DNA of 64,000 nucleotides from Spiroplasma phoeniceum P40 (GTDB lineage Bacteria; Bacillota_I; Bacilli_A; Mycoplasmatales; Mycoplasmataceae): assembly GCF_003339775.1 (NCBI RefSeq), contig NZ_CP031088.1:868001-932000 (forward strand), read 5' to 3'. Below the pieces are notes generated by a model, which had not been told where the DNA came from, made no database searches, and was given only the letters and a program-made list of their open reading frames with translations. The translations under genes were made by a program, and so were the position numbers. Of the stretch, positions 62,790 through 62,899 are shown one piece after another (position 1 is the stretch's first letter; each line of letters begins with the position of its first letter).

Positions 62790-62866
62790 GTAAAAGGGCT
62801 ATACAGCCCCAATATGTACACCTGCATTTCAGCAAGCGAGCCTCCAACAGTCTAACCTGAGGATTA
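62790..62866 (-). ncRNA. candidate structured small RNA or leader
   Basis: About 76 bases between a promoter and a hairpin terminator (GGGCTGTATAGCCC plus T run at 62791-62810). On the minus strand it folds into CCTC...GAGG, then CTTGC/GCAGG (one U-G pair), then the terminator stem. G+C content is clearly above the surroundings. It could be an independent RNA or an attenuating leader for the 62004-62741 gene. It does not look like a tRNA. Confidence 0.5.
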
Positions 62867-62871
62867 AGTAT

Positions 62872-62899
62872 ATTATACATAAATATAATTGTTTGTAAA
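62872..62899 (-). promoter_or_regulatory. promoter for the structured RNA
   Basis: On the minus strand TTTACA (-35), 16 bases and TATAAT (-10), with the expected start about 6-7 bases downstream. Confidence 0.65.

What the first reader, a model, noticed from the sequence alone, without database searches (positions are those of the whole stretch)
62790..62899. Candidate structured RNA with own promoter and terminator
A clear TTTACA-16-TATAAT promoter, two stems and a hairpin with T run lie in 110 bases with raised G+C. Either it is a stand-alone phage RNA or an attenuator controlling the opposite-strand gene 62004-62741. It does not fit tRNA or a riboswitch class I recognise.
Basis: partly seen in the sequence, partly recalled or inferred. 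Interest (0 to 1): 0.6.

Follow-up and report, generated by a model that had tools for sequence, protein, structure and literature searches.

The report
Prophage small RNA in cargo slot
A Spiroplasma prophage carries a short folded RNA with its own promoter and terminator, placed just ahead of an unknown gene in a spot where related phages keep toxin-antitoxin genes, so it looks like real but still unproven RNA cargo rather than a chance pattern.

Summary
On the minus strand a TTTACA-16-TATAAT promoter (62899-62872), two hairpins and a terminator (62810-62795) lie in a 47% G+C island within a 22% G+C prophage. The promoter is not chance: its 38-bp core recurs about ten times in this genome and in related Spiroplasma genomes and S. 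citri phage-plasmids, at a cargo slot that usually holds Panacea (DUF4065) toxin-antitoxin genes. The RNA occurs four times in this genome (three distinct sequences) and in no other collection searched. One locus (two identical tandem prophages) is followed by the 245-aa ORF P0001, one by a frameshifted Panacea gene, one by another structured RNA. All variation is pairing-compatible, but there is no covariation, and folding is only modestly better than shuffles. No antiterminator, tandem repeats, Rfam match or antisense target in the prophage was found. Best reading: a small cargo RNA of about 75 nt, and in this copy also the terminated leader of P0001, wired like RNA-antitoxin/effector units (RCd22-AbiF, type III TA). 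The antitoxin role is inferred. Neighbouring slots carry other unclassified RNAs; one (RNA-A) has two compensated base pairs. Transcription and function are untested.

The parts
62872..62899 (-). cargo-slot promoter TTTACA-16-TATAAT
   Evidence: 11/12 consensus; core AATAAAGGTATTTACAAACAATTATATTTATGTATAAT recurs 9-10 times in own genome, 3 each in G001 and G003, none with the reversed control pattern; S. citri phage-plasmids
62863..62940 (-). stretch shared with S. citri phage-plasmids (promoter plus upstream part), at the same place between portal and terminase genes
   Evidence: 89-94% identity
62788..62865 (-). candidate small RNA (RNA-C), about 75-78 nt; start inferred from the -10 box
   Evidence: 4 copies in own genome at 96-100%; 47% G+C island; fold
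62843..62863 (-). hairpin 1; its loop holds the one position that differs in all three distinct copies (G/T/C)
62819..62838 (-). hairpin 2 (CGCUUGC UGAAAU GCAGGUG); one G-U to G-C change between copies
62795..62810 (-). terminator hairpin GGGGCUGUAUAGCCCU followed by UUUACUUU; one C-G to U-G change between copies
62747..62827 (-). possible 26-codon leader ORF MQVYILGLYSPFTLLINNKIIKLERI running through the terminator, ending 5 nt before P0001; no evidence that it is translated
   Evidence: read from the sequence; 46-codon version in copy L056
62004..62741 (-). P0001, 245 aa (code 4, TGA=W), downstream gene of unknown function
   Evidence: no Pfam, PADLOC, PHROGs, NCBIfam or PDB match of weight; N-terminal 95 aa 34-38% identical to stand-alone ORFs in G005 and G008
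61962..61986 (.). terminator AAAAAGAGATTTAATAATCTCTTTTT closing the cargo slot between P0001 and terminase
   Evidence: sequence; same element ends the slot in related loci
62936..62968 (+). divergent phage promoter-like element TTGACAAATAATTTTAATGACGGTATCATCACG
   Evidence: 3 identical copies in the window, 0 expected

Best explanation
RNA-C is a small structured RNA gene carried as accessory cargo by a temperate Spiroplasma phage. A conserved prophage promoter starts transcription at about 62865. Most transcripts would stop at the terminator near 62790, giving a three-hairpin RNA of about 75 nt. In this copy a minority reading through would express P0001. The slot normally holds toxin-antitoxin genes and P0001 has no protein partner, so the most likely role of the RNA is to restrain or partner the P0001 effector, in the way RCd22 acts on AbiF or ToxI on ToxN. 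Shown: the promoter family, the copies, the island, the slot and its other cargo. Inferred: transcription, termination, read-through, that P0001 is an effector, and the RNA's action on it.
For: Conserved promoter at the same phage location in S. citri, where it drives Panacea antitoxin genes. Panacea and Fic/Doc genes in other slots with this promoter. Layout promoter-RNA-terminator-53 nt-ORF with no strong promoter before the ORF. The RNA is kept in three distinct loci with only pairing-compatible variation. Of the G+C islands inspected in the prophage it is the only non-coding one that is more than a plain terminator. The published prophage system RCd22-AbiF has the same layout: promoter, RNA of about 100-130 nt, terminator, effector gene, start site 168 nt before the ATG (PMC12373285).
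Against: Two of three distinct loci have the RNA without P0001, so co-occurrence rests on one independent locus. Stand-alone relatives of the P0001 N-terminal domain follow within tens of bases of upstream genes in three of four loci, with no such RNA. The RNA has no tandem repeats, and P0001 matches no known toxin. Folding is only modestly better than shuffled sequence. No transcript evidence was available.
Confidence: 0.4

Rival explanations
1. RNA-C is an autonomous trans-acting small RNA of the prophage, unrelated in function to P0001. It is one of several structured RNAs (RNA-A to RNA-E here) that these phages carry in the slot, acting on host or competing phages by base pairing or protein binding.
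For: RNA-C occurs before three different neighbours: P0001, a frameshifted Panacea gene, and RNA-E/RNA-A. Other slots carry RNA-A (13 copies) and RNA-B (7 copies) in three genomes. RNA-A has two compensated stem pairs and its own -10-like box.
Against: No complementarity to the prophage above shuffled controls; host targets were not searched. In the window P0001 seems to have no other good promoter. RNA-C shows no similarity to RNA-A, RNA-B or RNA-D with the model.
Confidence: 0.33
2. RNA-C is a cis-acting attenuator or leader of P0001. Termination at 62795 is the off state, relieved by a signal or by translation of the 26-codon leader ORF through the hairpin.
For: Terminator and gene on one strand, leader ORF ending 5 nt before the P0001 ATG, no strong internal promoter. 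A transient pairing of GGCUC with the terminator's 5' arm appears in partial transcripts.
Against: No antiterminator within 6 kcal/mol of the full fold (0 of 1305); the one tested costs 11 kcal/mol. The unit persists without P0001. In S. citri the same promoter drives its gene with no leader RNA. A 26-codon open frame is unremarkable here.
Confidence: 0.15
3. The island is a decayed or non-functional remnant, for example debris of a larger RNA array, with a chance hairpin.
For: Modest folding z score; no relatives outside this genome; no covariation.
Against: Promoter, both hairpins and terminator are intact in all three distinct copies, and no stem pair is broken.
Confidence: 0.12

Closest known systems
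RCd22-AbiF (prophage abortive-infection system, Clostridioides difficile; PMC12373285)
   Same: Prophage location; sigma-A-type promoter; short RNA ended by an intrinsic terminator just before an effector gene without its own promoter; similar spacing (124 nt here, 168 nt there from start site to ATG).
   Different: No abiF RNA motif (Rfam); P0001 does not match the Abi_2 family; RNA-C lacks the two repeated motifs; two RNA-C loci have no effector.
Type III toxin-antitoxin systems (ToxIN, CptIN, TenpIN; PMC8860590)
   Same: Order promoter, RNA, hairpin terminator, ORF.
   Different: No tandem RNA repeats and no ToxN-type toxin match.
Panacea (DUF4065/SocA) toxin-antitoxin cargo of Spiroplasma phages
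   Same: Same slot, same promoter.
   Different: Protein antitoxin and no RNA in the S. citri portal/terminase slot; here RNA plus an unrelated ORF.
Phage immunity RNAs such as P4 CI and P1 C4 (from memory)
   Same: Short structured RNA of similar size from a prophage.
   Different: Those act by antisense pairing to phage transcripts; no such pairing in this prophage above background.

Membership tests
Type III toxin-antitoxin system | promoter with -10 and -35 before the RNA | tested here: met
   conserved
Type III toxin-antitoxin system | tandem repeats forming the RNA antitoxin | tested here: not met
   no repeats within 62788-62865
Type III toxin-antitoxin system | terminator between RNA and toxin gene | tested here: met
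Type III toxin-antitoxin system | ToxN/CptN/TenpN-type endoribonuclease | tested here: not met
   no Pfam, NCBIfam, PADLOC or PDB sequence match; fold model too poor to decide by structure
AbiF system with abiF RNA | abiF RNA motif | tested here: not met
   Rfam scan to E 10
AbiF system with abiF RNA | Abi_2 family protein with HEPN-like fold | tested here: not met
   no Pfam match; structure inconclusive
tRNA or tmRNA | cloverleaf or tmRNA fold | tested here: not met
   ARAGORN
Known riboswitch or other Rfam family | covariance-model match | tested here: not met
Cis-acting attenuator | mutually exclusive antiterminator | tested here: not met
   0 of 1305 suboptimal structures within 6 kcal/mol; a transient pairing in partial transcripts is possible
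Antisense prophage immunity RNA | complementarity to a phage transcript | tested here: not met
   best trans score 18.8, null mean 21.4
Structured RNA in general | compensatory base changes | tested here: inconclusive
   three distinct near-identical copies; 0 compensatory, 2 one-sided compatible, 0 broken of 20 pairs
Structured RNA in general | detected transcript | not testable with these tools
   no RNA data held

The most novel reading that the evidence does not exclude
Temperate Spiroplasma phages use one conserved promoter slot to swap protein toxin-antitoxin cargo with arrays of several unrelated structured RNAs (RNA-A to RNA-E here), forming an undescribed RNA-based addiction or defence repertoire, with RNA-C and P0001 as one RNA-effector pair.
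Probability: 0.25. Interest if true: 0.75.

Novelty: new variant of a known kind. Interest (0 to 1): 0.5.

Why it matters
Phage cargo is catalogued almost wholly as proteins. A slot that alternates between Panacea toxin-antitoxin genes and unclassified structured RNAs behind the same promoter would make RNA cargo of mollicute phages findable by a simple rule (search behind this promoter) and testable in culturable spiroplasmas. If RNA-C controls P0001, it would be a new RNA-effector pair outside the known type III and AbiF families.

Tried and rejected
Rfam at gathering and loose thresholds: no family; a weak MCS4 score in L056 (35.1 bits, cut-off 56) comes from terminator hairpins. tRNA: none in the window. 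Antisense target in 50 kb of prophage: none above shuffles. Antiterminator: none. Relatives of RNA-C in 59 relatives by BLAST, 13 other genus members with the covariance model, GTDB r220 contigs (2 patterns), IMG/VR (3 patterns), plasmids and phages: none. Homology between RNA-C and RNA-A, RNA-B or RNA-D with the model at full sensitivity: none. P0001 structure: mean pLDDT 35.5 and 43.7, no usable PDB fold match. The weak CdiI_N Pfam score (16.5 bits, cut-off 25) was not accepted. Papers: nothing found on small RNAs of Spiroplasma phages in the held library.

Full report
Setting. The window lies at 868001-932000 of the main contig of a 1.9-Mb genome. Its genes need the Mycoplasma/Spiroplasma code (TGA = Trp), and its nearest annotated relatives are Spiroplasma citri phage-plasmids. 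The finding sits in a prophage, between terminase large subunit (ends 61961, plus strand) and portal (from about 63491, plus strand). The same RNA and gene recur 33,344 bases further on in a nearly identical prophage stretch.

The observation. On the minus strand: promoter 62899-62872, predicted start near 62865, hairpin 1 (62863-62843), hairpin 2 (62838-62819), terminator hairpin (62810-62795) with an imperfect T run, then P0001 from 62741 to 62004. The island has 47% G+C in a prophage averaging 22%, and none of 2628 same-size prophage windows folds as stably. Of the four other G+C islands inspected, three lie in or at the edge of genes and one (59599-59679) is a terminator region. Against dinucleotide shuffles the fold is only modestly unusual (z -2.1, p 0.03; without the terminator z -1.6, p 0.08). 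Promoter-like hexamers are common by chance here (28 found, 24 expected), the terminator is not (1 found, 0.1 expected).

The promoter is real and marks a cargo slot. Its 38-bp core has nine matches within 3 mismatches in this genome and none for the reversed control; a degenerate form finds ten here, three in G003 and three in G001. In S. citri phage-plasmids it lies at the same place between portal and terminase and directly drives a DUF4065 gene and a second ORF. Pfam confirms the Panacea (SocA) antitoxin domain in cargo proteins behind this promoter (E 9e-17 for L094, 1e-5 for L091) and a weak Fic/Doc match in L088. Two other slots carry lipoprotein-like ORFs (L089, L093). So the slot holds exchangeable accessory genes, often toxin-antitoxin pairs.

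The RNA as a unit. RNA-C occurs four times in this genome: twice identical with P0001 (tandem prophages), once at 83613 before a Panacea gene that is split in two frames, and once at 1152486 beside a tRNA-Ser gene, before other G+C-rich structured sequence. Between the three distinct copies, within the RNA, one loop position takes three different bases, one G-U pair becomes G-C and one C-G becomes U-G; none of 20 pairs is broken and none is changed on both sides. This is compatible with a conserved structure but does not prove it. No relative was found elsewhere; the tools note that records of very close genomes may be left out.

Company of other RNAs. Slots with the same promoter in L059-L061, L091 and L097 hold other G+C-rich, terminator-ended stretches. 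RNA-B folds with z -4.8 (flanking hairpins included) and has seven copies in three genomes. RNA-A has 13 copies, often at the end of the slot and preceded by its own -10-like box, and two pairs of its closing stem change from G-C to A-U on both sides. In L097 an array RNA-D, RNA-E, RNA-A, RNA-B precedes a Panacea-like gene that has its own -10-like box (the S. citri relative of this locus is annotated DUF4065). None match Rfam. Copy L056 has RNA-C in front of RNA-E/RNA-A-like sequence. So RNA-C is not isolated: these phages seem to carry several unrelated structured RNAs in this slot. The names RNA-A to RNA-E are mine.

What it may do. Physically, RNA-C is the terminated leader of P0001 in this copy, since no strong promoter lies in the 53 nt between terminator and gene. 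A classical attenuator needs a competing fold; none of 1305 suboptimal structures within 6 kcal/mol breaks the terminator, and the antiterminator I tested costs 11 kcal/mol. A 26-codon ORF through the terminator ends 5 nt before P0001 and could couple translation, but an open frame of that length is unremarkable here. Antisense action on its own prophage is not supported. The layout matches RCd22-AbiF (PMC12373285) and type III toxin-antitoxin operons (PMC8860590), where an abundant terminated RNA neutralises the read-through effector. It is not a member of either: no repeats, no abiF motif, no ToxN or Abi_2 protein. P0001 is new; its first 95 residues match stand-alone ORFs in G005 and G008 (34-38% identity) whose neighbours look like a GIY-YIG protein, an HNH-like protein and AAA ATPases (my reading, not confirmed with family models). 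I put the RNA-effector model at 0.4, the autonomous RNA at 0.33, pure cis attenuation at 0.15 and a remnant at 0.12.

Limits. No transcript data, no covariation for RNA-C itself, no protein structure of use, and only one independent locus pairing RNA-C with P0001.

Noticed in passing
L091 1150-1500 (-), L097 1270-1680, L059, L056, L104, L106, L112: RNA-A and RNA-B: unclassified structured RNAs in Spiroplasma phage cargo slots, 13 and 7 copies; RNA-A has two compensated stem pairs and RNA-B folds with z -4.8; no Rfam match.
   Followed up: partly
L097 about 1270-1440; L115 (S. citri CP047438.1): An RNA array (RNA-D, RNA-E, RNA-A, RNA-B) behind the cargo promoter, upstream of Panacea genes on an S. 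citri phage-plasmid.
   Followed up: partly
window 63267-63338 (-): Possible short hydrophobic peptide (TTG start, LDIPSIILILIIITIIILILKNK) after AAGGGG and followed by a hairpin, resembling a type I toxin; a related stretch at own genome C1:165506 lacks its N-terminal part.
   Followed up: partly
window 59534-59566, 62936-62968, 63429-63461 (+): Three exact copies of TTGACAAATAATTTTAATGACGGTATCATCACG, probably a co-regulated phage promoter; two copies flank a 493-bp stretch absent from the S. citri relatives.
   Followed up: partly
own genome C1:1643191, 1663525, 1683861: Same promoter and RNA-B at 20.3-kb spacing beside a tRNA-Ser gene (ARAGORN in one of the three): probably three tandem copies of another prophage.
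   Followed up: no
P0001 residues 4-100; L084, L085, L086, L087: A domain of about 95 aa, INK..W.. with ..FW.NYE.KW, found as stand-alone ORFs beside nuclease-like and ATPase-like genes in mobile elements; no Pfam or NCBIfam family.
   Followed up: partly
window 49480-49835: About three long A+T-rich direct repeats (TTTATTAAACAATAAATAAACAATAG...) between small genes near the prophage start; possible iterons.
   Followed up: no
window 53011-53747 (+): Two neighbouring pentapeptide-repeat proteins (ADLQGA type) in the prophage early region.
   Followed up: no
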